Below are positions 14,350 to 33,157 of a stretch of 33,157 nucleotides of DNA, piece after piece. A program made the translations under genes and the position numbers. The stretch covers positions 1 through 33,157 of the forward strand of contig DYLN01000025.1 of the NCBI GenBank assembly GCA_020722085.1, read 5' to 3'. Position 1 is the stretch's first letter. Each line of letters starts with the position of its first letter. This DNA comes from Melioribacter roseus. Lineage in GTDB: Bacteria; Bacteroidota; Ignavibacteria; Ignavibacteriales; Melioribacteraceae. The notes beneath the pieces were generated by a model that had not been told where the DNA came from, did no database searches, and was given only the letters and a program-made list of their open reading frames with translations.

Positions 14350-16242
14350 ATGAACAAAATTCTCCCATTTTTTCTTGTCATCTTTTTTTCTTGTGTCTTT
14401 TCTATCAGCTCTCAAACACAAAATCAGCTATACACGCCGATCGAATATCAACGTGCTTATAAAAAAGGAACACGTTCTATGGACGGGAAAGCCGGCGTTA
14501 ATTATTGGCAGAATTCATCCGACTATAAAATTAGAGTAGAAATAAATCCTTCTACAAGAGAACTTTCCGGTGAAGAAACTATTACTTACCATAATAATAG
14601 TCCCGACACCTTGAAACAACTCGTTGTTCGTCTTTATCCGGATATTTACAGAAAAGGAAATATCCGCGACTTTGAAATTCCCCCGCAAGCTGTAACCGAA
14701 GGCACTAATATTAAGCAGGTCACGCTTAACGGAAAAGAGATAACGTTGAAAGGCAGCGAGGAATCCCCTGTTAGGCAGGGAACAAACCTGATATTTAAAC
14801 TGAATTCTCCGATTCCTCCTAAATCAAAAGTCAGCTTGGGATTTAAATGGAATTACATAATTTCGGAAGAAGCTCCTATTCGCACCGGTGCTTACGACAG
14901 CACATCGTTTTTAGTTGCCTATTGGTACCCTCAAATGGCAGTTTATGATGATATATCCGGATGGGATATGCTGAATTACACAGGGAGTCAGGAATTCTAT
15001 AATGACTTTTCGAATTACGATGTTGAGATTACACTTCCTAAAGGATTTTTAGTATGGGCAACCGGACTGCTTCAAAATCCTGAAGAAGTTTATTCTGGAA
15101 GAACTTTGGAGAAAGTTAAAGAAGCGTGGAAATCCGATAAGGTTGTGAGAATAGTTACCGATGAGGATTTGAAGAGAGGCGCGCTAACGGCAGATAATCC
15201 TAAAAATACTTGGAAATACAAAGCCGAAAATATAAGTGATTTTGCCTTTGGAACAAGTAATCATTATCTGTGGGATGGTTCAACCGTTGTTGTAGACAGC
15301 TCAACAGGAAGAAAGACATTCGTTGATGCTGCTTATAAAAAAGAATCCAAAGACTTTTACGAAGTTGCGGAAATAGCAAGAAATTCAGTAGCAATGCTTT
15401 CACATGATTTTCCAGGTTACCCTTTTCCATATCCAAAAGAAACTATTTTTAACGGCTCGGGTGGAATGGAATATCCCATGATGGTCAATGACGGCTCGTC
15501 TCAGGAGAGGTGGGGCACGGTTCACGTTACATCGCACGAAATATCTCATACTTATTTTCCTTTTATGATGGGAATAAATGAAAGAGCGTACGCATGGATG
15601 GACGAAGGCTGGGCAACAGCGCTGCCATACGATATTCAGGAAAAACTTTCTCCGGGCTACAAACCAAGAGCAAGAAATGCCGAATCTTATTCTAAATACG
15701 GCGGCACAGAAGGAGAAGTACCGTTGATGGTGCCTTCTTATATTTTAACGGGGGCTTCCTATAGAACCGCATCTTACAGAAGACCTGGGTGTGCATACGA
15801 TTTTTTGAGAGATATGTTGGGCGACTCTTTAATGAAAAAAGCTTTGCATGAATACATGAACAGATGGAGAGAAAAGCATCCGACCCCATTTGATTTCTTT
15901 TATACATTTAACGATGTCACAAAACAAAACTTAAACTGGTATTGGAAGGCGTGGTTCTATGACTGGGCATATCCGGATCTTGCCGTTGGAAAAATCACTA
16001 ATTCATCGGGTAAAAATTTTATTGAAGTTGAGAATATAGGAAAACTTCCCCTGCCGGTTTATTTAAATGTTACATACAAAGACGGGACGAAGGAGACAAT
16101 TAAACAAACAGCAGCCGTCTGGAAAAACGGAAACGAAAAAGCCATAATTGCAGTTAAAAACAATAAAAAAATTAAAGAAGTGGAATTGGGAGATCCGCGG
16201 GTTCCCGACGTAGATATTTCAAATAACAAAAAAGAATTTTAG
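14350..16242 (+). CDS. Secreted M1-family metallopeptidase, first paralogue
   Basis: A 630-residue exported peptidase with an N-terminal signal peptide (residues 1-22, hydrophobic, ending SISSQTQ). The N-terminal beta domain (40-200) is followed by the thermolysin-like catalytic domain. The exopeptidase motif is GGMEYP (E374), and the zinc site is HEISH (H396, H400) with E419 in WMDEGWA, giving the M1 spacing HExxH-x18-E. It lacks a T9SS C-terminal domain. A strong ribosome site GGAGGTAATGAAATG fixes the start. It is the first gene of a tightly spaced run with the second M1 gene 25 bases downstream. Confidence 0.9.
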   Translation: MNKILPFFLVIFFSCVFSISSQTQNQLYTPIEYQRAYKKGTRSMDGKAGVNYWQNSSDYKIRVEINPSTRELSGEETITYHNNSPDTLKQLVVRLYPDIYRKGNIRDFEIPPQAVTEGTNIKQVTLNGKEITLKGSEESPVRQGTNLIFKLNSPIPPKSKVSLGFKWNYIISEEAPIRTGAYDSTSFLVAYWYPQMAVYDDISGWDMLNYTGSQEFYNDFSNYDVEITLPKGFLVWATGLLQNPEEVYSGRTLEKVKEAWKSDKVVRIVTDEDLKRGALTADNPKNTWKYKAENISDFAFGTSNHYLWDGSTVVVDSSTGRKTFVDAAYKKESKDFYEVAEIARNSVAMLSHDFPGYPFPYPKETIFNGSGGMEYPMMVNDGSSQERWGTVHVTSHEISHTYFPFMMGINERAYAWMDEGWATALPYDIQEKLSPGYKPRARNAESYSKYGGTEGEVPLMVPSYILTGASYRTASYRRPGCAYDFLRDMLGDSLMKKALHEYMNRWREKHPTPFDFFYTFNDVTKQNLNWYWKAWFYDWAYPDLAVGKITNSSGKNFIEVENIGKLPLPVYLNVTYKDGTKETIKQTAAVWKNGNEKAIIAVKNNKKIKEVELGDPRVPDVDISNNKKEF

Positions 16243-16267
16243 CTGTTTACTTCAAAGGAAAAACATT

Positions 16268-18199
16268 ATGAAAAAACAAATTCTCTTATCATTTTTTTCC
16301 GTCACCTTTTTTATAGTATCATTTGACAATTCATTTGCACAGCAGCTGCCAAGATTGTTTGTCCCGGAAAGTATTAAAGCGGCTTATAAAAACGGCACGC
16401 GAGCTCTCGATGGAAAACCAGGTAAAAATTATTGGATAAATTCTTCAGACTATACTATAAAAGCAGAACTTTTTCCCGAGACAAGAACGATTAAAGGTCG
16501 TGAGTGGATAACTTTTCACAACAATAGTCCGGACACACTAAAAACATTTATGTTCCGATTGTATCAAAATATTTTTAAAGAAGGAGGCGCACACGAATTC
16601 CCCGTTGATAAAAGAGATTTAACTAACGGTGTTAATATTGATACTCTTATCATCGATGGAAATGGATACAGTCTTAACGAACGTAGTTTAGGTCGGTTTG
16701 GTTTTAGAAGTGTATCAACAAATTATTTTATAAGAAAGCTTGTAAAACCTATACCACCAAACTCTATTGCTAAAGTGGAAACAGAATGGAGTTTTGTAAT
16801 TCCAAAATATTCCAGAAATAGAATGGGTGCATATAACGATTCAACATTTTACGTTGCTTACTGGTATCCGCAAATTGCCGTTTACGACGATATCGATGGC
16901 TGGGATAGACAGGAATTTACCGGCACGACAGAATTTTACAACGACTTTAACAACTACAACGTCGAAATAACAGTACCAGGTAACTTTTTGGTAAGAGCAA
17001 CCGGCGAATTAAAAAATGCACAGGAGGTTTTAGATTCCGAAGTTTATAACAGATACAAAAGTGCGTTTGCGTCAGACACAGTGATTCATATTATTACTTC
17101 CGAAGATTTGAAGAACAACACCGCAGTAAAAAATAGACAAAAAAATACATGGAAATACTCAGCCGAGCATGTACCCGACTTTTCATTTTGTGCAACGGGG
17201 CAATATTTATGGGATGGCGTAAGTGTAGTTGTGGATAACAGTACCGGAAGAAGAGTGTTTACTGATGCAGTTTATCCCGAAGGAGCCGCCTTTTGGAATG
17301 AGGTGGCATCATTTGCTCGTCAATCGGTTGAATATTTTTCTAAAGAACAACCCGGCGTACCTTTTCCTTATCCTAAAATAACTGTGTTTAACGGAGAACG
17401 AAACCGCGGCGGCGGAATGGAAACTCCGATGATGTGTAACAACGGTCAATATAGAACCAGGGGCGGACAATTAGGTGTTACAGCACATGAAATTGCTCAT
17501 ACTTATTTCCCTTTTTATATGGGTATCAACGAAAGGAAATATGCATGGATGGATGAAGGCTGGGCAACATATTTTACTTACGGTGTTGTAAAAAAAGAGG
17601 CACCAGATGAAGACGAGTTTCCGGGCACAGTACATACTCTTTCTGTCGCATTACCAACTGAAGCAATGATTCCGCCAATGATTCTTTCCTATGAAGCAAC
17701 GGGTGGCAGCGGATACACCCTAATGGCATATCCCCATGCAGCGTTTGCTTATACTATGCTTCGGGATATTCTAGGAAAAGATGTTTTTGCCGAAACTCTT
17801 CACGAGTATATTAAGAGATGGAACGGTAAACATCCCATACCTTACGATTTTTTTAATACATTCGACAATGCTTCCGGGAAGAACCTTAACTGGTTCTGGA
17901 AACCGTGGTTCTTTGAAAAAGATTATGCCGATCTGGCAATTAAAAATGTAGAAGCCGATAAGAGTGTTTATAAAGTTGTTATTGAAAATATTGGCGGACT
18001 GCCGCTTCCGGTTAATTTAAAACTAATCTATGAAGATGGAAAAGAAGATTCCATTTACAACACGGCAGAAGTTTGGAAAGATAACAATGATGAGATAACA
18101 ATTAATATCCCTGCAAAAGGGAAAATCAAAAAAATTGAACTGGGAAGCGATTTAATTCCTGATTCGGATAAGTCAAACAATACTTATGATCTAGAATAA
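16268..18199 (+). CDS. Secreted M1-family metallopeptidase, second paralogue
   Basis: A 643-residue paralogue of the preceding gene, with the same order of motifs: signal peptide (1-24, ...DNSFAQ), NYWINSSDYTIKAEL, GGGMETPMMCN, HEIAH (H407, H411) and the downstream glutamate E430 in WMDEGWA. The C-terminal ending GSDLIPDSDKSNN parallels GDPRVPDVDISNN of the first copy. Divergence is spread over the whole length, so the duplication is old. The gap to the subtilase gene is 22 bases. It probably cleaves N-terminal residues from peptides outside the cytoplasm, feeding a protein-scavenging lifestyle. Confidence 0.9.
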   Translation: MKKQILLSFFSVTFFIVSFDNSFAQQLPRLFVPESIKAAYKNGTRALDGKPGKNYWINSSDYTIKAELFPETRTIKGREWITFHNNSPDTLKTFMFRLYQNIFKEGGAHEFPVDKRDLTNGVNIDTLIIDGNGYSLNERSLGRFGFRSVSTNYFIRKLVKPIPPNSIAKVETEWSFVIPKYSRNRMGAYNDSTFYVAYWYPQIAVYDDIDGWDRQEFTGTTEFYNDFNNYNVEITVPGNFLVRATGELKNAQEVLDSEVYNRYKSAFASDTVIHIITSEDLKNNTAVKNRQKNTWKYSAEHVPDFSFCATGQYLWDGVSVVVDNSTGRRVFTDAVYPEGAAFWNEVASFARQSVEYFSKEQPGVPFPYPKITVFNGERNRGGGMETPMMCNNGQYRTRGGQLGVTAHEIAHTYFPFYMGINERKYAWMDEGWATYFTYGVVKKEAPDEDEFPGTVHTLSVALPTEAMIPPMILSYEATGGSGYTLMAYPHAAFAYTMLRDILGKDVFAETLHEYIKRWNGKHPIPYDFFNTFDNASGKNLNWFWKPWFFEKDYADLAIKNVEADKSVYKVVIENIGGLPLPVNLKLIYEDGKEDSIYNTAEVWKDNNDEITINIPAKGKIKKIELGSDLIPDSDKSNNTYDLE

Positions 18200-18221: not shown

Positions 18222-21101
18222 ATGAGTTACTGGAAACTGATTTTGCCGGCGTTATTGATTGCAGGCATAATATTTGGACAGAGCAAAGTAATTCAAAAAG
18301 GCAATAAATATTATTTGTCCGACAAGGTGGTTGTAAAGTTTAAAGATAGTTACCCTGTTGCCGGGGGTAACAGTTATATCCTTCCACCGAAATTGCTGAA
18401 CAAGCTGCGGCGCGCCGGCGCTGCCAAAGTTGGCACACGATTCGAATTTAAAGCCGGAATTTTAAGGAAAGGCGAAGAGAGCCTTTCACGAATAGCATCT
18501 CTAAAAATAAATAGTTACGAAAACCCCGAAAACGTGATTAAGAAACTAAAAAAATTAAAAGAAATAGAATGGGCAGAACCACGCTACGTCTACCGCCTTA
18601 CTGCAGTTCCAAACGATTCTTTATACCTGCAGGGAACACAGACCAACCTTGACAGAATAAAAGCCGCAGATGCGTGGAATGTGGTAACCGGGGATTCAAA
18701 TGTTGTTATTGCAATTATTGATACAGGAGTTGATTGGAAACATCCCGACTTAAATCCAAATATATGGCGTAACCCGCATTGGCAAACCGATACTGATTTT
18801 CCCGGAGATTCAATAGGCTGGGATTTTGGCGGGTTGAATGGAACGCCGGATAACGATCCCAATGAAGATAAAGATTCCCGAAACCCATACCATGGAACAC
18901 ACGTTGCTGGAATTGCTGGTGCTGTTACAAATAATGGAATTGGAATAGCTTCAATAAGCTACAATTGCAGGATATTTCCGGTGAAGGTTACAAGGAGTGA
19001 TTATAGAGATTCCCACGGTTCGCCGTATGTTTATTACGGTTTTGATGGAATTAAATATGCTGCAGATATGGGCTGCAAAATAGCCAATTGCAGCTGGGGG
19101 GGATATAGCTATTCAAGAGCGGAGCAGGAAGTTATCGATTATGCAGTGTCGAAAGGAATGCTGGTCGTTGCTGCTCAGGGAAACGACAATAAAAACGAGC
19201 CGTTTTATCCTGCCGATTACAACGGTGTACTTTCTGTTGGCTGGCTTCAAACAACTTCCGACAAGAAGAGCATTGCTGCAAACTACGGAACACAGGTAGA
19301 TGTCTTTGCACCTGGAGATTTAATAATGTCAACGTTTCCTACATATTCAACTTCAAACCCGTATTATAACCCGTGGTACAGCGGCTCGTCAATGTCGAGT
19401 CCGCATGCTGCAGGTTTGGCGGCTTTGGTTGCTTCGGTTCCCGTGTTTTCAAATTGCACACCGCTGCAGATTGCAGAACAAATTCGTGTAAACTGCGATA
19501 ATATTGACGCCTCTAATCCCGGATATGAATATATGCTCGGCAGAGGAAGAATTAATGCATATAAAGCAGTTTCAAATACAAACTCAATTTCAGTAAGAGC
19601 AAACAGAGTTGAATTGCATGAAATTGGAAACGGCGATGGTCTTTTTGAATCCGGCGAATCAGTTACCATAGGAGTAAATTTTGTTAATTACTTAAATCCC
19701 ATCACAAATTTTACAGCGGTGCTTCAGCAAAGTGACCCAAATATTATTTTGGAAAACGCACAATTCAATGGCGGCAGCGTCGGAATGCTGGACAGCGTCA
19801 ACAATTATTCGAATCTTTTCAGAGTTAGAATAACAGATAACGCCGCACAGGATCACATAGTAAATTTACTTATTAAGTATTCCGGCGATAACGGATATGA
19901 TGATTTTCAATGGATAACATTTAATATTAATCCTCCGTACAGAACCCAAAACGCAAATAAAATAGCAACAACCATTACCAGTAAAGGCGTTATCGGATAT
20001 AATGATTTTCCCAATAATCTTCAGGGAATTGGATTTAAGTATAATGATAATGAGAGCGTATTGTTCGAGGGAGCTTTTATGTATGGAAATTCTCCTCAAA
20101 AGGTAATGGATGCCGCGCGGAAATTGGATGACCAGAGTCATGATTTTGTAACGCTGCAAAGCATAGAGATGAGTTCGCCGGGAATTATTTCGGCGCAGGA
20201 TGGAAAATCTGTCTTTAATGATTCCGGTGATACGGTTAATTCGCTTGGCATTGAGACACAATTTAAGACTTACGAATTTACTCAAGCTGGCTACGATAAT
20301 TTTATAATTATCAGGACGCAGCTTTTTAATAAAACTGACACAGCAGTAACCAATCTCTATGCCGGTTTATATCTTGACTGGGACATTCCCGAATCAGATT
20401 ATGACCATAATACTGCAGCTTACGATTCAGCCGGCAACTTTTCGTATGCTTATAACACAGCAGGCACAACAAACATTTATTACGGAGCCGCATTAATTTC
20501 TGATGATAATTACGGAGCTTATGCAGTTGATAATGCGGCATCGAGCGGCGTGGTTCTGAGTGATGGTTTTTCCGATAGTGAAAAATGGACAACTATGACA
20601 AGCGGACTTGCAAATTCAAATGCAGGGGTTGGTGATATTTCTTTGGTAGTTTCCGGCGGCCCTTATTCTATTCCTGCCGGCGGCTATAAAGATGTCGGAT
20701 TTTGCCTTGCTGCCAGCGCCTCTGTTGATGAACTGAGAACGTCGGTTCAAAATGCTCGGCAGAAATTTGCCGGTATTATTACTGCAGTTGATGCTGAAAA
20801 AGAAAAACTCCCGGCGGAATTTAGTTTGGAACAAAATTACCCGAATCCGTTTAATCCAACTACTACAATAAAATATTCAATAGCCCCTCCAAACCTCACC
20901 AAAGAGGAGACTTTACAGAATGTTACATTGAAAGTGTACGATGTGCTCGGCAGAGAAGTCGCCACTTTGGTGAATGAAGAAAAATCCCCGGGAAATTACG
21001 AAGTAAAATTTGATGCCTCAAAACTTGCAAGCGGAGTCTATTTTTACAGGCTGACTGCTGGCAATTTTGTATCAACAAAAAAAATGGTGTTATTGAGATA
21101 A
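18222..21101 (+). CDS. Subtilisin-like S8 peptidase with T9SS C-terminal domain
   Basis: A 959-residue secreted endopeptidase. Residues 1-20 are a signal peptide; about 30-125 resemble an inhibitor-like propeptide ([13 protein letters not shown]...[10 protein letters not shown]). The S8 catalytic domain has Asp167 in IIDTGVDW, His227 in HGTHVAG and Ser390 in [11 protein letters not shown]. The region 440-865 is beta-rich, and residues 870-959 are a Por/T9SS type A sorting domain ending KKMVLLR. That tail is identical at the DNA level to the one on the protein at 23309. T9SS tails of this type direct passage through the outer membrane and are then removed. Confidence 0.93.
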
Positions 21102-21424
21102 TGAGAGAAATATGACAGAGAAAACCAGTACAATATTCGATATTCTTATTTTAATATTTGGCAGTACAGCCGGCTCATTCTTTTCCGGAGTTTTGCTTCA
21201 AGCGCTTGGGCTTAAAACATGGACTTTTTTATTTGCGGTTCTGTATTTGATTCTGTTTTTAATTTTGTTTCAGATTGCTGTAATAGCAGTCTCTTTATTG
21301 TTTGGCAGGAGTAAATTTTTTTTAGAAGCAATTAAGAGATTTTACTTGAAGAAGTAGGAAAATATTTGCTGTCCAAAGCCGCTAATTCGCGAATAGCCAA
21401 TATATGTTACGCTCTGTTCTATAC
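20829..21424 (+). repeat. 596-bp perfect direct repeat, copy 1
   Basis: By line-by-line reading, this segment is identical to 24785-25380 at a constant offset of 3,956. It covers the last 90 codons of the subtilase gene (T9SS tail), the entire 81-residue membrane protein and about 67 bases of 3' flank. Two mismatches separate the following 15 bases. The flank contains the near-palindrome GCTAATTCGCGAATAGC. Confidence 0.9.
21112..21357 (+). CDS. Small two-helix membrane protein, copy 1
   Basis: An 81-residue protein with two hydrophobic segments (about 10-32 and 36-64) and a basic C-terminal tail (FLEAIKRFYLKK). The ribosome site is GAGAGAAAT just before the ATG, 10 bases after the subtilase stop. 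It has no recognised domain. An identical copy lies at 25068-25313, also directly behind a gene with a T9SS tail, so it travels with the tail. It may act with the exported proteins or simply be carried along. Confidence 0.65.
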   Translation: MTEKTSTIFDILILIFGSTAGSFFSGVLLQALGLKTWTFLFAVLYLILFLILFQIAVIAVSLLFGRSKFFLEAIKRFYLKK

Positions 21425-21427
21425 AGG

Positions 21428-22001
21428 CTAATTCATAAAATTTATTTTGATGTTTACAATTTTTGAGAGCATAGCAGGACCAATTATCGTTCCAAGATGA
21501 ATATCCAAAACAACAGCAATGTTTAACTTCTTCAGTGCGCCCGCCTTTTTATTTACAGTTAATGAAAGATTTTTGACCGTTATTTTTTTCGTATTTATAA
21601 AGCCTGCTAATACCAGAATAGAAACAACAAAAAGAATGACCGCCACCGTAATTTTTTTTGCTGTATAATAGTCTTTTGTAATGAATGAAGGGAATATTCC
21701 GAAAAAGTGGTTTAACAAGCGGAGGCAATCGATAATTAAAAAAAGAGGAAAAAATAAAACATAAAAGCAAACCAGAAAGAGTCTATCCAGATTAAAGCAT
21801 TGGTGAAAACAGAAGCGTATTTTCTCTCTAAAAATTTTCCGGCTAAGAAAGATAAAATTATAACTATCATAATAGTTAGAAAAGGATACTTAAAATTTTT
21901 GGAAATGACAGTTAAACCTCTTTTGAGAATGTAAAAGTTTATGAGTCCGTAGACAGCAAGTACAACTGTAAAAAAATTATGGTGGCGGTTTTATTGGTCA
22001 T
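21428..22001 (-). pseudogene. Decayed membrane-anchored metallophosphoesterase (YkuE-like)
   Basis: Read on the minus strand, several frames together spell the N-terminal half of a membrane metallophosphoesterase: helices around LAVYGLINFYILKRG, WIDSFWFAFMFY and KKITVAVILFVVS, then KKLNIAVVLDIHLGTIIG, the first metal motif (DIH). Three frameshifts are needed (near 21975 and 21745 in A/T runs, near 21880), and the gene stops right after GTIIGPAMLSKIV, before the GD, GNH and later metal motifs. Its break coincides with the right edge of the 596-bp repeat. No active enzyme can be made. Confidence 0.7.
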
Positions 22002-22249
22002 GACTGATGAATAGTTGAATTTTAAAATTGATTATACATAAATTTTTCCAAACGAACAGTAAAAATGCCGATTAAAGTTTATTTCTGAAATAGAAATAAT
22101 GATAATGGTTACTTTTTGTTAAGAAATTTTCGAAGCACAAAAATTAACAATGTAATTTGAGATAATATGTCTATTAATGAAATTTTTTTAGTTGACATCG
22201 CAAAAATATTTATTTAGGTTTTTTACAGGAAATGTGGAAGGAAGGAAAA
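22002..22249. other. Intergenic region before the lipoprotein gene
   Basis: No gene seen. AT-rich. A candidate promoter is TTGACA at 22193-22198 followed after 16 bases by TAGGTTTT at 22215-22222, which resembles the Bacteroidota -7 element TAnnTTTG. A ribosome site GGAAGGAAA precedes the ATG at 22250. Confidence 0.4.
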
Positions 22250-23269
22250 ATGAAAAAGGTTTTATTATTGTCGGTGGTTTTACTTGTACTTCTACAGCAA
22301 TGTAGCAGTCCAACTAATCCGCCGCCGGAAAAACCCCTGAAAGACCCCAGGACTTACGAATGGACCATTGATACCCTGAAGATTAGTTTTCAAACAAGTT
22401 TGGGCAGAATATGGGGCAGTGCGCCTAATGATGTTTACATAGGAGGTCACAACATTGATGCGTATAAGCCAGGCAACTTATGGCATTTTGACGGAGACAG
22501 TTTGTTTCCAGTTGAATTGCCTATAGATGTATATTCAATAGACGGCATATATGGCTTCTCCTCTACAAATGTGTGGGTTGTGGGTGAAAGAGCAGCAGGC
22601 GGGAGTTTAATTCTAAACTATAACGGAATGGTATGGAAAAACTATTCAATTAATGAAGGTAAAGCACTTTTATGTACATGGGGTAGTTCATCAAAAAATA
22701 TTTGGGCTGCTGGGAGAAACACTTTGTTCTATTATAACGGAAGCACATGGAATAAATTTCCAATATTTATTCCAACTCAAGGGATTCAATTTATTAGTAT
22801 TGCAGGTTTAGGCGCTAATAATGTTTATATGTCTGGATATCGAAATGATGCAGTACCACCGATAGACACTGCTTTCTATTATCTGTACAATTTTAACGGT
22901 AGCCAGTGGTCTGTAGTGGATTCTTCATATTCGACACCGTATGAAGTTGTCATAAATTTTGGAGTTATAGTAAAAGCAATCGGCGGTTCGATGTATAGTG
23001 CAGGTCGCAAAATATTTAAGAAAGAAAGTAATGATTGGGTTATAATAAATGATGATCCACTGATAGTAAGCTTAGGCGGCAGTAGTTCAAAAAATTTATT
23101 TGCTGCTGGACTTTCTGGAATAGTTTATCATTATAATGGTTCTGACTGGAAGAAAATATTAATTGAGGAAGGATTTCAAGAAAGTATAATTGATATCTGG
23201 ACTGATGGAACTGAAGCATTTATGATAGCTTCAGATGGGTACCGGAGTTTCTTTATTCACGGGAAATAA
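22250..23269 (+). CDS. Secreted lipoprotein with beta-propeller-like repeats
   Basis: A 339-residue protein with a lipoprotein signal: hydrophobic LLLSVVLLVLLQQ followed by Cys18, the lipobox cysteine. The mature part repeats the pattern W-G-S-S-(S/P)-x-(N/D)-x-(W/Y)-x-(A/G)-G about every 50 residues (IWGSAPNDVYIGG, FSSTNVWVVG, WGSSSKNIWAAG, GGSSSKNLFAAG), alternating with LxHFDG/YYNGSTW strands. This suggests a beta-propeller. The start at 22250 is preferred to the ATG at 22232 because the ribosome site lies between them. It precedes the T9SS protein by 39 bases and is likely its co-transcribed partner. Function unknown. Confidence 0.75.
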   Translation: MKKVLLLSVVLLVLLQQCSSPTNPPPEKPLKDPRTYEWTIDTLKISFQTSLGRIWGSAPNDVYIGGHNIDAYKPGNLWHFDGDSLFPVELPIDVYSIDGIYGFSSTNVWVVGERAAGGSLILNYNGMVWKNYSINEGKALLCTWGSSSKNIWAAGRNTLFYYNGSTWNKFPIFIPTQGIQFISIAGLGANNVYMSGYRNDAVPPIDTAFYYLYNFNGSQWSVVDSSYSTPYEVVINFGVIVKAIGGSMYSAGRKIFKKESNDWVIINDDPLIVSLGGSSSKNLFAAGLSGIVYHYNGSDWKKILIEEGFQESIIDIWTDGTEAFMIASDGYRSFFIHGK

Positions 23270-23308
23270 ATAATAAATATTTTTCAACAACTAAAAAGAG
23301 GTAAAAAA

Positions 23309-25057
23309 ATGAACTCTATAAAGTTGTTCAATTTGCTTTTTGCTTTATTCTTTCTCTTATTTCTTGGGGAAGTATTTCCTCAATGCGATCCAACAGATTG
23401 CCTCGGTTATTATCAAAATAACAATTCTAATGCAAGGATTTTGCACAGTCATAATACTGAACTAGGCGGAAAAGGGAATTGTATAGGATTTGCAATTGCT
23501 TCAACGCAGCAAAGTTACATCGGGTTCATATGCGGTGAGCCAAAATCGATAGCGATAGGTGAAGCCTATGCAAAAAACTACTGGATGGACTGGGGATTTT
23601 ATAGCAAGTATGATTTTACAGGAGGAGCAGCTTCAGATGACATTTTGATTTGGGATCCTGAGCCAAATAATATTAATTATCCTTTAAGGCATGCTGCAGT
23701 TGTAACTTCTACAGGCTCCGGCTGGATAGATATTGAATGGATTGATGCATCATTGTCCGATGATTCCGTTCATCACACTACTTTATTTTCTCCAAATTAC
23801 TCTGATCCGACTTATGGTACTCCAAGTTACATAGTAAGACTAAATTATGGAAGTAAAACTTATGGATATGCAGTAACTGTTAAAACCTCTTTTAACGGCG
23901 GCAGTGTTAAAGTAGATGGAGTAAATTACAACATAAACGGAAGTTCCGGAACGCTGGTCAGTAATTTAAGCAGGGGTGAACATGATTTATACGCAGATGA
24001 AACACAATATAATGGCAGCGAACCGCTTGGGTATAAAGAGTGGAGAGATATTATCTACCGTGAGCAATTAGCTTCCTATCCATATCATACAGCAACAATA
24101 ACCTTAAGCAGTTCCAATGGTTTTGGCGGACAGTATACTGCTAATTATGTGCCGATATATCAGATAAATTTTCAAAATAATTTCGTTAACGTTGGTAGCG
24201 GCGGTGTTATTAATGTAAACGGTTCACAGTATGATTCTCCTACCGGTACTTTTCCTGTTAAAGAAGGAAACTCTATTACTGCCTCTGCAATAGGTCCTCA
24301 AACATTCAACGGCATTAATTACAGTTTCGATCACTGGAGTGACGGCAGTACTTCCAGCGCCAAAACTTTTTATTCGAGTTCAAACATAACATATACAGCA
24401 TATTTTATTGGTTGTCCTGACCCATCTGCTATAAATTTTGGATTCGATTATATTGCAGATAATCCCATTAAATTCCATTGGACTGATAACCCTAACACAG
24501 CAGTTACACAGTATCAAATCTGGCGTAAGGTAAAACATAATGGTGTGATGGGCAGCCCTGTTCTTTTAACAACTGTTGGCAGAGGAGTTCAGACCTATAC
24601 AGATTATGATTACGTTTTTACAGACGGCTACACAGATGATTTAGTTATGTATGACGTGAGGCAGTATTATTCTATAGAAAACACATATTCACCAGAGTAC
24701 TGGCATGTAGAATTTGGTGGGCTACCGCCATTAAATAAAATACAGGTTAATAAAAATACAAAAGAGATAAGAAACTACGCTTTTGAACAAAATTACCCGA
24801 ATCCGTTTAATCCAACTACTACAATAAAATATTCAATAGCCCCTCCAAACCTCACCAAAGAGGAGACTTTACAGAATGTTACATTGAAAGTGTACGATGT
24901 GCTCGGCAGAGAAGTCGCCACTTTGGTGAATGAAGAAAAATCCCCGGGAAATTACGAAGTAAAATTTGATGCCTCAAAACTTGCAAGCGGAGTCTATTTT
25001 TACAGGCTGACTGCTGGCAATTTTGTATCAACAAAAAAAATGGTGTTATTGAGATAA
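23309..25057 (+). CDS. Secreted CHAP-like protein with InlB-type repeats and T9SS tail
   Basis: A 582-residue exported protein. Signal peptide 1-24; N-terminal domain about 25-190 with GNCIGFA (Cys58), [15 protein letters not shown] (His128) and IEWIDA (E143/D146). This is the Cys-His-acid order of CHAP/NlpC-P60 amidases or peptidases. Two domains resembling divergent InlB B-repeats follow (about 190-275 and 280-370, [20 protein letters not shown]), then a fibronectin-III-like segment ([17 protein letters not shown], 375-480) and the T9SS tail 493-582. The tail is identical to that of the subtilase. The peptidoglycan or peptide substrate is not determined; the CHAP assignment is by motif order only. 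Confidence 0.65.
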
Positions 25058-25380
25058 TGAGAGAAATATGACAGAGAAAACCAGTACAATATTCGATATT
25101 CTTATTTTAATATTTGGCAGTACAGCCGGCTCATTCTTTTCCGGAGTTTTGCTTCAAGCGCTTGGGCTTAAAACATGGACTTTTTTATTTGCGGTTCTGT
25201 ATTTGATTCTGTTTTTAATTTTGTTTCAGATTGCTGTAATAGCAGTCTCTTTATTGTTTGGCAGGAGTAAATTTTTTTTAGAAGCAATTAAGAGATTTTA
25301 CTTGAAGAAGTAGGAAAATATTTGCTGTCCAAAGCCGCTAATTCGCGAATAGCCAATATATGTTACGCTCTGTTCTATAC
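24785..25380 (+). repeat. 596-bp perfect direct repeat, copy 2
   Basis: Identical to 20829-21424. The sequence 5' is unrelated (CHAP-like protein instead of subtilase). On the 3' side the match weakens after 25380; GGGCT...AGCCC at 25381-25399 forms a small hairpin in this copy only. Confidence 0.9.
25068..25313 (+). CDS. Small two-helix membrane protein, copy 2
   Basis: Identical in protein and DNA to the gene at 21112-21357: 81 residues, two hydrophobic segments, basic C terminus. It starts 10 bases after the stop of the CHAP-like T9SS gene. Perfect identity including the non-coding flanks means recent duplication or gene conversion, so the identity by itself is not evidence of protein-level selection. 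Confidence 0.65.
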   Translation: MTEKTSTIFDILILIFGSTAGSFFSGVLLQALGLKTWTFLFAVLYLILFLILFQIAVIAVSLLFGRSKFFLEAIKRFYLKK

Positions 25381-25395
25381 GGGCTAATTTATAAA

Positions 25396-25964
25396 GCCCA
25401 AGATGGAAATTTTACGAAATAGGTTTAATCAATTAATGGATTCTTTTGAATCGATATTAACAATTATTTTGTTAAGTGATACGGCAATGCAATATAACAA
25501 GCAAGCCGACCGCTTTTTTCGCATTTGCTCGTCAGTCGTTCGACAGAATCTCGTTGAGTCCAATAGACTCTAACGGTCGAAGACTCAGACGGAATCTTCG
25601 ACTGTTAGTCACCAGACCTCGCTAGTGTAGTCTATTTGGACTCCCCGGTCGTCTCTGACGAACCTCGACAAAGTCGAGCAGAACGCTCGTCTCGGCAAGA
25701 ACGAAGTCCTGACGGAGAGTTCTAACAAACCGGACTTTAATAAGCATTTGTGTAATTTTAATTGCAGTTAGTCCCAGCCAGCGGCTGACAAGCTGTGTCG
25801 GCTGTTCCGTTCAAGGTAGAAGTCCTAAGAAAAATTCTTTGTAATTTCGGAGTAGTTGGGCTAAGCGGCATTGTCGTATTGGGCTGCTGCCTTAACCGCA
25901 AGACCTACCGCAGAGTATTAGGCAAAGGGTTGACTTTAATTGTGGTATTGGATATAATATCACA
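25396..25964. other. ORF-free, GC-richer, highly palindromic region
   Basis: No convincing ORF in over 550 bases. By hand count 122 of 240 bases in 25501-25740 are G or C, against 13 of 60 in the start of the neighbouring PIN gene. Outer arms ATACGGCAATGC (25479-25490) and GCATTGTCGTAT (25868-25879) pair at 11/12. Inside are nested arms 25556-25569 with 25629-25643 (one bulge), 25570-25583 with 25595-25608 (one G-T), and hairpins CTCGAC/GTCGAG (25664-25678) and CAGCC/GGCTG (25775-25787). It may be a structured RNA, an integron-like non-coding cassette, or a mobile remnant. Confidence 0.6.
25513..25531 (+). repeat. 19-bp direct repeat, left copy
   Basis: CTTTTTTCGCATTTGCTCG, identical to 26713-26731, exactly 1,200 bases away. 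It is preceded by TATAACAAGCAAGCCGAC, which resembles the left half of integron attC sites. Confidence 0.8.
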
Positions 25965-26393
25965 ATGAAAAAATATAAAATTATTATTGATACTAATGTT
26001 ATAGTATCATCTTTACTCTCAAAGAAAGGTTTTTCATTTAAGCTTCTGTCAATTATTGATGACGAAAGAATAGAATTATTTATTTCAGTTCCAGTAATAT
26101 TAGAATATGAAGATGCTATTAAAAGGGAAAAGACTAATATTAAGTTTAAGAAATCTGAAATAGAGGATTTCTTGGATTTTATTTGTCTGATTGGAAAGCA
26201 GCGTAAGATACATTATTTGTGGAGACCATTATTAAAAGACCGTAAAGATGATATGTTTCTTGAATTAGCCGTAGAATCTGAAAGTGATTTTATAATAACA
26301 TTTAATAAAAGAGATTTTGAAAAAGCAGAATATTTTGGAATAAGAACATTGACACCGAAAGAATTTTTAATAGTAATAGGAGAAATAAAATGA
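25965..26393 (+). CDS. PIN-domain toxin (COG1569-type)
   Basis: A 142-residue PIN nuclease of toxin-antitoxin systems, expected to cut RNA. The acidic metal-binding residues are visible: Asp9 in IIIDTNV, Glu47 in ILEYED, Asp95/96 in KDDMFLE, and Asp108 or Asp117 in SDFIITFNKRDF. The C-terminal ending GIRTLTPKEFL is typical of the PIN family toxins that partner with small ribbon-helix-helix proteins. Its last 4 bases (ATGA) overlap the antitoxin start. Base composition is markedly A/T-rich compared with the upstream non-coding stretch. It sits between the 19-bp repeats. Confidence 0.88.
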   Translation: MKKYKIIIDTNVIVSSLLSKKGFSFKLLSIIDDERIELFISVPVILEYEDAIKREKTNIKFKKSEIEDFLDFICLIGKQRKIHYLWRPLLKDRKDDMFLELAVESESDFIITFNKRDFEKAEYFGIRTLTPKEFLIVIGEIK

Positions 26394-26623
26394 GCACAAT
26401 AAGTTTGAGATTGCCAGAATCTTTGCACAAGAAAGCCCGTGAGTTAGCAAAGAAAGAAAATACTTCAATAAACCAATTGGTTTCATCGGCATTGGCAGAA
26501 AAGATTTCAGCATTGATGACAGAAGAATATATAGAGCAAAGAGCTAAGAGAGCAAGCAAAGAAAAATTTAAGAAAGTATTAAGTAAAGTTCCTAATGTTG
26601 AACCTGAAGAATACGATAAATAA
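26390..26623 (+). CDS. Ribbon-helix-helix antitoxin
   Basis: A 77-residue protein beginning TISLRLPESLHKKARELAKKENTSINQLVSSALAEK, the ribbon-helix-helix DNA-binding pattern (an N-terminal beta strand, two helices). The C-terminal acidic and charged tail (RASKEKFKKVLSKVPNVEPEEYDK) probably binds and blocks the PIN toxin. The gene order toxin then antitoxin with a 4-base ATGA overlap implies coupled translation. As in related systems, the complex is likely to repress its own promoter, probably upstream of 25965 (GGTATTGGATATAATATC), which I infer but cannot prove. Confidence 0.85.
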   Translation: MSTISLRLPESLHKKARELAKKENTSINQLVSSALAEKISALMTEEYIEQRAKRASKEKFKKVLSKVPNVEPEEYDK

Positions 26624-26692
26624 AAAAATCAGTGAAAGGAAGGTTGTAAGAAGAAAATAATTTTGGAAAAAGACCAAGTAAAAAGCAGCAGT

Positions 26693-32892: not shown

Positions 32893-33157
32893 TCGAATAG
32901 CAAAATTAATTTAATTGAAAAGCAGTAACAAGGTGCAGCAAGTATAATAATATGATATAATATATTACGAGTTCGTGGTAATAATATATTTTTTAGCACC
33001 AACTAAAAAAAGAACGATACACATTTTTTATTCTATTTAATGTGGTAACTGAAATGCTATATTCCAACTATAATTTAAGGGGATGCGTATTGAGAGTTGA
33101 GAATTGAAAATTGAATATTGAAAATTATTTTTGCTTTCAATGAATAAATTCTCAATA
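32893..33157. other. Intergenic region upstream of mnmE
   Basis: No gene seen. A/T-rich palindromic segment at about 32960-32990 (TATATTAC and GTAATAATATA around GAGTTCGTG). Near the window end, TTGAGAATT (33097-33105) and AATTCTCAA (33147-33155) form a perfect inverted repeat enclosing TTGAAAATTG-type repeats. Confidence 0.45.

What the first reader, a model, noticed from the sequence alone, without database searches (positions are those of the whole stretch)
20829..25380. T9SS tail, small membrane gene and flank duplicated as one perfect 596-bp cassette behind two unrelated proteins
The two copies are identical through coding and non-coding parts at a constant 3,956-base offset, while the upstream passenger regions (subtilase, CHAP-like protein) are unrelated. 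That means recent gene conversion or cassette transfer which adds a secretion tail plus an 81-residue membrane gene to a new passenger. It could be a way for the genome to recruit proteins to T9SS export.
Basis: partly seen in the sequence, partly recalled or inferred. Interest (0 to 1): 0.7.

Follow-up and report, generated by a model that had tools for sequence, protein, structure and literature searches.

The report
Secretion tail swapped onto neighbouring gene
A stretch of DNA holding a protein-export tag and a small membrane gene was recently copied from one secreted-protein gene onto an unrelated neighbour that probably already had such a tag, and similar tag swaps, several with their break at the start of the tag, turn up in related bacteria.

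Summary
In detail: window 20829-21424 and 24785-25380 match over 596 of 596 bases; the flanks differ. The block holds a type IX secretion tail, an 81-residue DUF6787-like membrane gene and 67 bases of flank, and was found only twice in the genome. The copy behind the subtilase is native: subtilase, tail and DUF6787-like gene stand in this order in two relatives, and a metallophosphoesterase remnant follows, an old neighbour. The copy behind the CHAP-like gene is derived. Relatives of that gene's C-terminal part have their own tails in 13 of 14 fetched loci, so a tail was probably replaced, not recruited. The left edge lies at the tail's [10 protein letters not shown] motif; the right edge has only a 15-base near-match. 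It is not a one-off: partial tail samples from three relatives gave 10 tail pairs with at least 40 identical bases behind unrelated passengers, and one single-contig genome shows same-passenger/different-tail and same-tail/different-passenger genes with the switch inside YPNPFNP. Best reading: ectopic recombination anchored in the tail. Only 6 of 13 shared tracts start at the motif, so it is no fixed joint. No sign of a mobile cassette. Assembly error is unlikely but not excluded without reads.

The parts
18222..21101 (+). Subtilase-family protein (959 aa, 'SUB') ending in a T9SS type A tail; native owner of the block
   Evidence: PF00082 4e-42, PF18962 46.6 bits; 75% aa match to its passenger part in sister genome G001, with about 12 kb of synteny
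20829..21424 (+). Repeat copy 1 (native): tail codons [10 protein letters not shown] to stop, 81-aa gene, 67-bp 3' flank
   Evidence: 596/596 identical to copy 2; old neighbours on both sides
21112..21357 (+). 81-aa protein with two hydrophobic stretches, DUF6787-like (below cut-off), 10 bp after the tail stop
   Evidence: 23.6 vs 27.5 bits; hydrophobicity and spacing; same place behind SUB in G001 and G025
21449..21975 (-). Remnant of a metallophosphoesterase gene (about residues 9-185 of 385, frame broken, C-terminal half missing)
   Evidence: convergent intact gene beside SUB in G013 and G034 and beside the DUF6787-like gene in G032
22232..23269 (+). 345-aa lipoprotein-like protein with repeated motifs (label from reading the sequence)
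   Evidence: translation; weak Rax2 propeller hit below cut-off
23309..25057 (+). 582-aa CHAP-like (unconfirmed) protein carrying the copied tail
   Evidence: PF18962 47 bits; relatives of its C-terminal region carry tails of their own in 13 of 14 fetched loci
24785..25380 (+). Repeat copy 2 (derived)
25068..25313 (+). Second, identical copy of the 81-aa gene
25381..25395 (+). 15-bp extension with 13/15 matches to 21425-21439; right junction of the copied tract
14350..18199 (+). Two M1-family peptidase genes upstream of SUB (old neighbourhood)
   Evidence: PF01433; an M1 gene next to SUB in G001, G004, G007 and G025

Best explanation
A recent ectopic recombination event copied the 3' end of the subtilase gene (its tail), the downstream 81-aa gene and 67 bases of flank onto the CHAP-like gene about 4 kb downstream. 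The exchange was anchored on the left by the homologous T9SS tail that both genes carried, at its [10 protein letters not shown] motif, and resolved on the right at a short near-match. It replaced the recipient's old tail in frame and put a second DUF6787-like gene behind it. It is one instance of a wider process in this family: tails are shared, in-frame homology between dozens of otherwise unrelated secreted-protein genes, so recombination swaps tails and passengers there. Shown: identity, only two copies found, which copy is native, and shuffling of tails and passengers in other genomes. Inferred: the recipient's old tail, the order of events, and the route (gene conversion, or homology-facilitated illegitimate recombination with DNA from a sibling cell).
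For: 596/596 identity with abrupt edges, the left one at the tail motif, same frame in both genes. Copy 1 is native: about 12 kb of synteny with G001 including SUB, tail and DUF6787-like gene; M1-SUB-tail-DUF6787 in G025; a metallophosphoesterase remnant follows copy 1, and an intact convergent one follows SUB in G013 and G034 and the DUF6787-like gene in G032. Relatives of the CHAP-like gene's C-terminal part have tails of their own in 13 of 14 fetched loci. Recurrence: in G001 C5 the tail plus about 156 bp of 3' flank is shared 2889 bp apart by 1808- and 338-aa proteins without similarity (detail); in G089, a single contig, 89 identical bases lie behind unrelated passengers 2293 bp apart; in G009, a single contig, 1786155 and 1789240 share the passenger (99% over 291 bp) but not the tail (55%), while 1789240 and 1750814 share the tail (97%) but not the passenger (30%), the switch lying in 17 bases common to all three, within the DNA of YPNPFNP. 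In the own genome the C109 tail is a mosaic of two others (83-bp and 47-bp exact runs). Pairs with a shared run of at least 40 bases and unrelated passengers lie within 5 kb in 5 of 10, against 88 of 5157 other pairs.
Against: The right edge is not in pre-existing homology, so classic two-ended gene conversion does not fit. Only 6 of 13 shared tracts behind unrelated passengers start between -9 and +3 of YPNPF; the other 7 start at +30 to +165, so the motif is not a fixed joint. The metallophosphoesterase remnant is cut off about 10 bases from the right end of the similarity, which the model does not explain. The recipient's old tail is not seen. The DUF6787-like gene follows SUB in only 2 of the 12 SUB loci fetched from relatives. 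SUB's own tail is less like its G001 ortholog (43-64% aa in the last two 60-residue blocks) than most of the passenger (57-92%), and the block's reported matches in G001 are other tails, so that tail may itself have been exchanged earlier. The genome is a fragmented bin with one redundant contig pair (C139/C158, 14.77 kb at 99.99%). Four of the 10 pairs come from one G009 region, so events are fewer than pairs. Two of the three mosaic tails in the own genome lie within 210 bp of contig ends.
Confidence: 0.72

Rival explanations
1. Two-step tandem duplication: unequal crossing-over between the tails of the subtilase and CHAP-like genes duplicated the 3.96-kb unit, and a later deletion removed the second CHAP-like gene and its old tail, leaving the present A-R-B-R-C layout.
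For: Explains the left edge by ordinary homologous recombination and the right edge as a deletion end; the same layout (direct orientation, 2889 bp) occurs in G001 C5; several shared-tail pairs are direct neighbours.
Against: Needs two events; the deletion must start where copy 1 borders the metallophosphoesterase remnant; no leftover of a second CHAP-like gene was seen downstream of 25396 in the ORF list or the repeat searches.
Confidence: 0.2
2. Assembly or binning artefact: the repeat was resolved wrongly, for example two strains or two genes joined through a shared tail.
For: Fragmented bin (338 contigs), redundant contigs C139/C158, tails near contig ends somewhat more than expected (13 of 64 within 400 bp, expected 9.6%, p 0.007).
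Against: Both copies have distinct flanks on both sides, and the right flanks already differ at 21425; one real copy cannot supply two left and two right neighbours. The block shares at most 24 exact bases with any other of the 64 tails. The same kind of event is seen in the single-contig genomes G009 and G089. Assembler and reads of this genome are unknown to me.
Confidence: 0.1
3. Mobile or programmed cassette (integron-like or transposon-like) that spreads a tail plus a membrane gene to new passengers.
For: A compact unit with an in-frame tail and an accessory gene; a toxin-antitoxin pair of mobile character lies downstream (87% DNA to G042).
Against: Only two copies found in the genome; in the other 78 family genomes no reported match beyond the tail part (capped scoring); no inverted repeat pairing the block's two edges among those listed (one search lists 25 of 28 pairs and does not cover the left edge of copy 1); the left edge coincides with protein homology. 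A recombinase or attC search was not made.
Confidence: 0.03
4. Insertion of the middle segment (metallophosphoesterase remnant, lipoprotein-like gene, CHAP-like gene) into an ancestral SUB-tail-81aa locus by template switching, duplicating the block at the insertion point.
For: Explains why the metallophosphoesterase remnant is cut off next to the right end of copy 1.
Against: A convergent metallophosphoesterase next to SUB (G013, G034) or the DUF6787-like gene (G032) looks like the old order, so the start of the middle segment looks native.
Confidence: 0.08

Closest known systems
KLIKK proteases of Tannerella forsythia (PMC4404884; abstract and passages seen)
   Same: Different catalytic domains of one genome end in a virtually identical T9SS C-terminal domain; six genes in two clusters; the authors call this unusual and suggest a common, relatively recent origin by fusion
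   Different: The passages seen give no breakpoint analysis. Here the shared tract includes a downstream gene, the native copy is identified, and swaps recur in several genomes, some broken inside YPNPFNP
Domain rearrangement and allelic exchange in P. gingivalis surface proteins (PMC5266723; passages seen)
   Same: Recombination and gene conversion among T9SS-exported surface proteins
   Different: There adhesin and catalytic modules vary in front of a conserved C-terminal domain; here the tail itself is exchanged
Homology-facilitated illegitimate recombination (PMC3240628, abstract and passages; PMC5361080, passages on T6SS effector displacement in Vibrio)
   Same: One homologous end and one illegitimate end; brings in downstream DNA next to a conserved anchor
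   Different: Known from transformation and conjugation, and proposed for T6SS loci; the route is not shown here
Rhs/CDI-type C-terminal replacement (recalled; mentioned in PMC5361080 passages)
   Same: A constant module next to an exchangeable one, with a small downstream gene carried along
   Different: There the variable part is the toxic 3' end with its immunity gene and the 5' end is constant; here the C-terminal tail is the shared piece and the 81-aa gene is not known to be an immunity gene

Membership tests
T9SS type A sorting domain (PF18962 / TIGR04183) | Profile match above curated cut-off at the C-terminus | tested here: met
   46.6 and 47.0 bits vs 27; 44.9 and 43.6 vs 23
T9SS type A sorting domain (PF18962 / TIGR04183) | Protein is exported through T9SS | not testable with these tools
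   Needs secretome data; T9SS machinery genes of this genome were not searched for
DUF6787 (PF20584) | Profile match above gathering score | tested here: not met
   23.6 bits vs 27.5; described as DUF6787-like only
Intragenomic gene conversion | Identical tract with abrupt edges between otherwise unrelated loci, donor in its old place | tested here: met
Intragenomic gene conversion | Both tract ends inside pre-existing homology | tested here: not met
   Left end in the tail; right end only 13 of 15 bases
Homology-facilitated illegitimate recombination | One homologous anchor and one illegitimate junction with few matching bases | tested here: inconclusive
   Junction anatomy fits, but the recipient before the event is not known
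Homology-facilitated illegitimate recombination | Uptake of linear DNA by the cell | not tested
   Competence genes not searched for
Mobile cassette or transposon | Further copies of the unit | tested here: not met
   Two copies only; none beyond the tail part reported in the other 78 family genomes (capped scoring)
Mobile cassette or transposon | Recombinase or recognised end sequences | not tested
   Inverted repeats looked at only in part; no attC or recombinase search
CHAP amidase | Profile or fold match | tested here: inconclusive
   No Pfam or NCBIfam hit; fold unusable

The most novel reading that the evidence does not exclude
In these Melioribacter-like bacteria the T9SS tail works, as a by-product of its conserved in-frame sequence, as a natural domain-shuffling joint: ectopic recombination in the tail, often in the roughly 20 bases encoding YPNPFNP, swaps passengers and tails (with downstream genes) between dozens of unrelated secreted-protein genes, preferentially neighbours, so that tails evolve as a recombining pool separate from their passengers.
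Probability: 0.5. Interest if true: 0.62.

Novelty: new variant of a known kind. Interest (0 to 1): 0.5.

Why it matters
Dozens of proteins per genome share one sorting tail (64 profile matches in this genome, 58 over the cut-off), and how so many unrelated proteins came to have it is open. If the tail is a recurrent crossover region, tail gain and exchange become traceable in genome sequences and testable in a laboratory strain. It also warns that tail similarity need not track protein ancestry, and that fragmented assemblies may break or mis-join at tails.

Tried and rejected
A mobile-cassette reading was dropped. A DNA-level signal in the motif was looked for by codon usage: some proline codons are biased against the passenger background (lowest p 8e-6, G089), but no codon is fixed at any of the seven positions in the four genomes, so no recombination signal is claimed. 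Rfam on the window: no hit. tRNA scan of the window: none. The G001 sequence downstream of the DUF6787-like gene showed no similarity to either right flank; the metallophosphoesterase remnant was used instead. Of the regions, four (G034, G013, G007, G032) were taken because one search had put a metallophosphoesterase near SUB or the DUF6787-like gene; in G007 it lies 8.5 kb away; the other eight regions and the G001 region showed none. One search showed one pair (G089 1480569/1483555) aligned with itself by mistake, because the two tails are identical; searches give its extents (-439 to +287). Some tracts for adjacent genes are overlaps of the same DNA; one search keeps only tracts in register. 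In one search minus-strand tails were read in the wrong orientation; mended. The passenger of C53 is only 46 aa (contig end), so 'unrelated' cannot be judged there. The CHAP fold prediction was unusable. Tail sampling was partial: 42 tails in G001 (68 profile matches), 43 in G009 (85), 83 in G089 (127), 55 in G000 (64 at a looser E), because one search did not list all matches and regions were chosen around listed, high-scoring and often clustered tails. The C139/C158 pair is a redundant contig, counted among the 22 pairs but not as biology. The proximity test with related passengers included gave 10 of 18 against 83 of 5149.
Full report
What is there. Two stretches, 20829-21424 and 24785-25380, are identical over 596 of 596 bases at an offset of 3956. 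Each runs from the codons [10 protein letters not shown] through the rest of a T9SS type A tail, the stop, a 10-base gap, an 81-codon gene and 67 bases of flank. Both passengers enter the block in the same frame. Similarity continues for 15 bases with two transitions and then ends. Simulated windows give longest repeats of 14-18 bases. The block was found twice in the own genome; the next best match is 73% and lies in the tail. In 79 family genomes (own included) no reported match outside the own genome extends beyond the tail part of the query (at most 7 candidates per genome were scored, at E <= 1e-20).

Parts. The upstream passenger is a subtilase; both tails pass the Por_Secre_tail cut-offs. 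The 81-aa protein resembles DUF6787 but below its cut-off. The window is the whole contig C35 of a 338-contig genome. The nearest named subtilase relatives are Melioribacter MAGs (49% over the whole protein, 53% over a partial match; the tool says the own genome may be left out), so I infer the family Melioribacteraceae.

Which copy is old. The sister genome G001 keeps the order over about 12 kb: peptidase, subtilase (75% aa), tail, DUF6787-like gene (about 42%). G025, another genus, has M1 peptidase, subtilase, tail and DUF6787-like gene in a row. This order is not general: 2 of the 12 subtilase loci fetched from relatives show it, and only 10 of 58 genomes, own included, gave any match to the 81-aa protein (the two weakest, G008 and G046, may be chance). 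On the other side, bases 21449-21975 on the minus strand are a broken remnant of a metallophosphoesterase, residues about 9-185 of 385. An intact one lies convergent right after the subtilase tail in G013, 1.1 kb after it in G034, and right after the DUF6787-like gene in G032; in G007 it is 8.5 kb away, and nine other regions showed none. So copy 1 sits among old neighbours on both sides and copy 2 is the derived one. A homolog of the CHAP-like protein was not found at the G001 locus (only a 36% match 32 kb away). One result cuts across this: the subtilase's own tail is less like that of its G001 ortholog than the passenger is, and the block's reported matches in G001 are other tails, so that tail may itself have been exchanged earlier.

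Replacement, not recruitment. Of 14 fetched loci encoding relatives of the CHAP-like protein's C-terminal part (the best places of 14 genomes), 13 have a T9SS tail 6-117 bases after the end of the match. The left edge of the copied tract falls in the part of the tail that tails share best. The simplest reading is that the CHAP-like gene already had a tail and received the subtilase's. The 81-aa gene came along because it lies 10 bases behind the tail.

Not a one-off. I collected tails in the own genome and three relatives (G000 55, G001 42, G009 43, G089 83 tails; partial samples) and listed pairs with an identical run of at least 40 bases in the tail. Of 6652 within-genome pairs, 6618 share runs under 30 bases and 22 reach 40. 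Leaving the own genome aside there are 18 such pairs, 10 with unrelated passengers by blastp. Of these 10, 5 lie within 5 kb of each other, against 88 of 5157 other pairs (Fisher 4e-7); four of the ten come from one G009 region, so the events are fewer, and the fetched regions favour clustered tails. The clearest cases: in G001 contig C5 the tail plus about 156 bases of 3' flank (with one indel) is shared, 2889 bases apart, by an 1808-aa and a 338-aa protein with no similarity, in the same A-R-B-R-C layout as the window. In G089, a single contig, 89 identical bases from -7 to +81 sit behind unrelated passengers 2293 bases apart. In G009, a single contig, genes 1786155 and 1789240 have the same passenger (99% over 291 bp) but different tails (55%); 1789240 and 1750814 have the same tail (97%) but different passengers (30%); 1786155 and 1751686 have the same tail and 3' flank (98%, 97%) but different passengers (26%). 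The first switch lies in the 17 bases CCCAATCCGTTTAACCC common to the three genes, part of the DNA of YPNPFNP. In the window's own genome the tail on C109 is a mosaic: 83 exact bases shared with C266 and 47 with C53.

Against. Of the 13 tracts shared behind unrelated passengers (3 in the own genome, 10 in the relatives), 6 start between -9 and +3 of YPNPF and 7 start inside the tail, at +30 to +165. That suits conversion tracts limited by where homology exists, not a fixed joint. Codon choice in the motif is biased at some prolines but nowhere fixed, so I see protein homology at work, not a DNA signal. The right edge of the window block lies outside old homology, and the metallophosphoesterase remnant ends close to the same point; I cannot explain that coincidence. 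The bin contains one redundant contig pair (C139/C158), and tails lie near contig ends more often than expected (13 of 64 within 400 bases, expected 9.6%, p 0.007), so assembly trouble at tails is possible. Still, two left and two right neighbours of the block cannot come from one real copy, and the single-contig genomes show the same kind of event.

Mechanism. Shown: identity, two copies, polarity, recurrence. Inferred: recombination anchored in the tail on the left with an illegitimate end at a 13-of-15 match on the right. This is like homology-facilitated illegitimate recombination (PMC3240628, PMC5361080; passages seen), or a conversion tract that ended by short-homology joining. A tandem duplication between the two tails followed by a deletion would give the same end state.

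Known and new. The closest precedent in what I saw is the KLIKK protease set of Tannerella forsythia, whose virtually identical tails behind different catalytic domains the authors call unusual and perhaps recently acquired (PMC4404884, passages). P. gingivalis rearranges domains of its T9SS-exported surface proteins (PMC5266723, passages). The Melioribacter roseus genome paper notes Por sorting domains on most of its CBM-containing enzymes (PMC3534657, passages). A Tannerella tail did not work properly in P. gingivalis (PMC11285876, passages), so tails are not freely exchangeable between species. The listings of searches in an open-access library showed me no paper on tail swapping at the YPNPFNP motif; most subscription journals were not covered.

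Verdict. It is one clean instance of a recurrent tail-swapping process.

Noticed in passing
window 25515-25730: GC-rich, CGAC-rich modular repeat present in pieces on contigs C97, C123, C45, C100, C251, C34 and C6 of the same genome, several near contig ends.
   Followed up: partly
window 25965-26623: PIN-domain / HicB- or CopG-like toxin-antitoxin pair; the DNA around it (about 25915-26671) is 87% identical to an order-level relative (G042), so probably recently mobile.
   Followed up: no
L144 and L145 (G000 C139 and C158): Two contigs of the bin share 14.77 kb at 99.99%, a redundancy that warns about strain mixture or assembly.
   Followed up: partly
window 20880-20925 and tails on C55, C266, C305: Several tails carry odd insertions at one place, between TTIKYS-like and VTLKVYD-like strands, the longest on C55:15682-15981.
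   Followed up: no
L197 (G089 1480569 and 1483555): Neighbouring paralogs with 61% identical passengers have 99.6% identical DNA over 727 bp around the tail: homogenisation of the 3' end.
   Followed up: partly
window 33076-33157: The contig end recurs on C153 (three times, 132 bases apart), C42 and C3 of the same genome.
   Followed up: no
window 21449-21975: Broken metallophosphoesterase remnant whose truncation point lies about 10 bases from the right end of the similarity between the two copies.
   Followed up: partly
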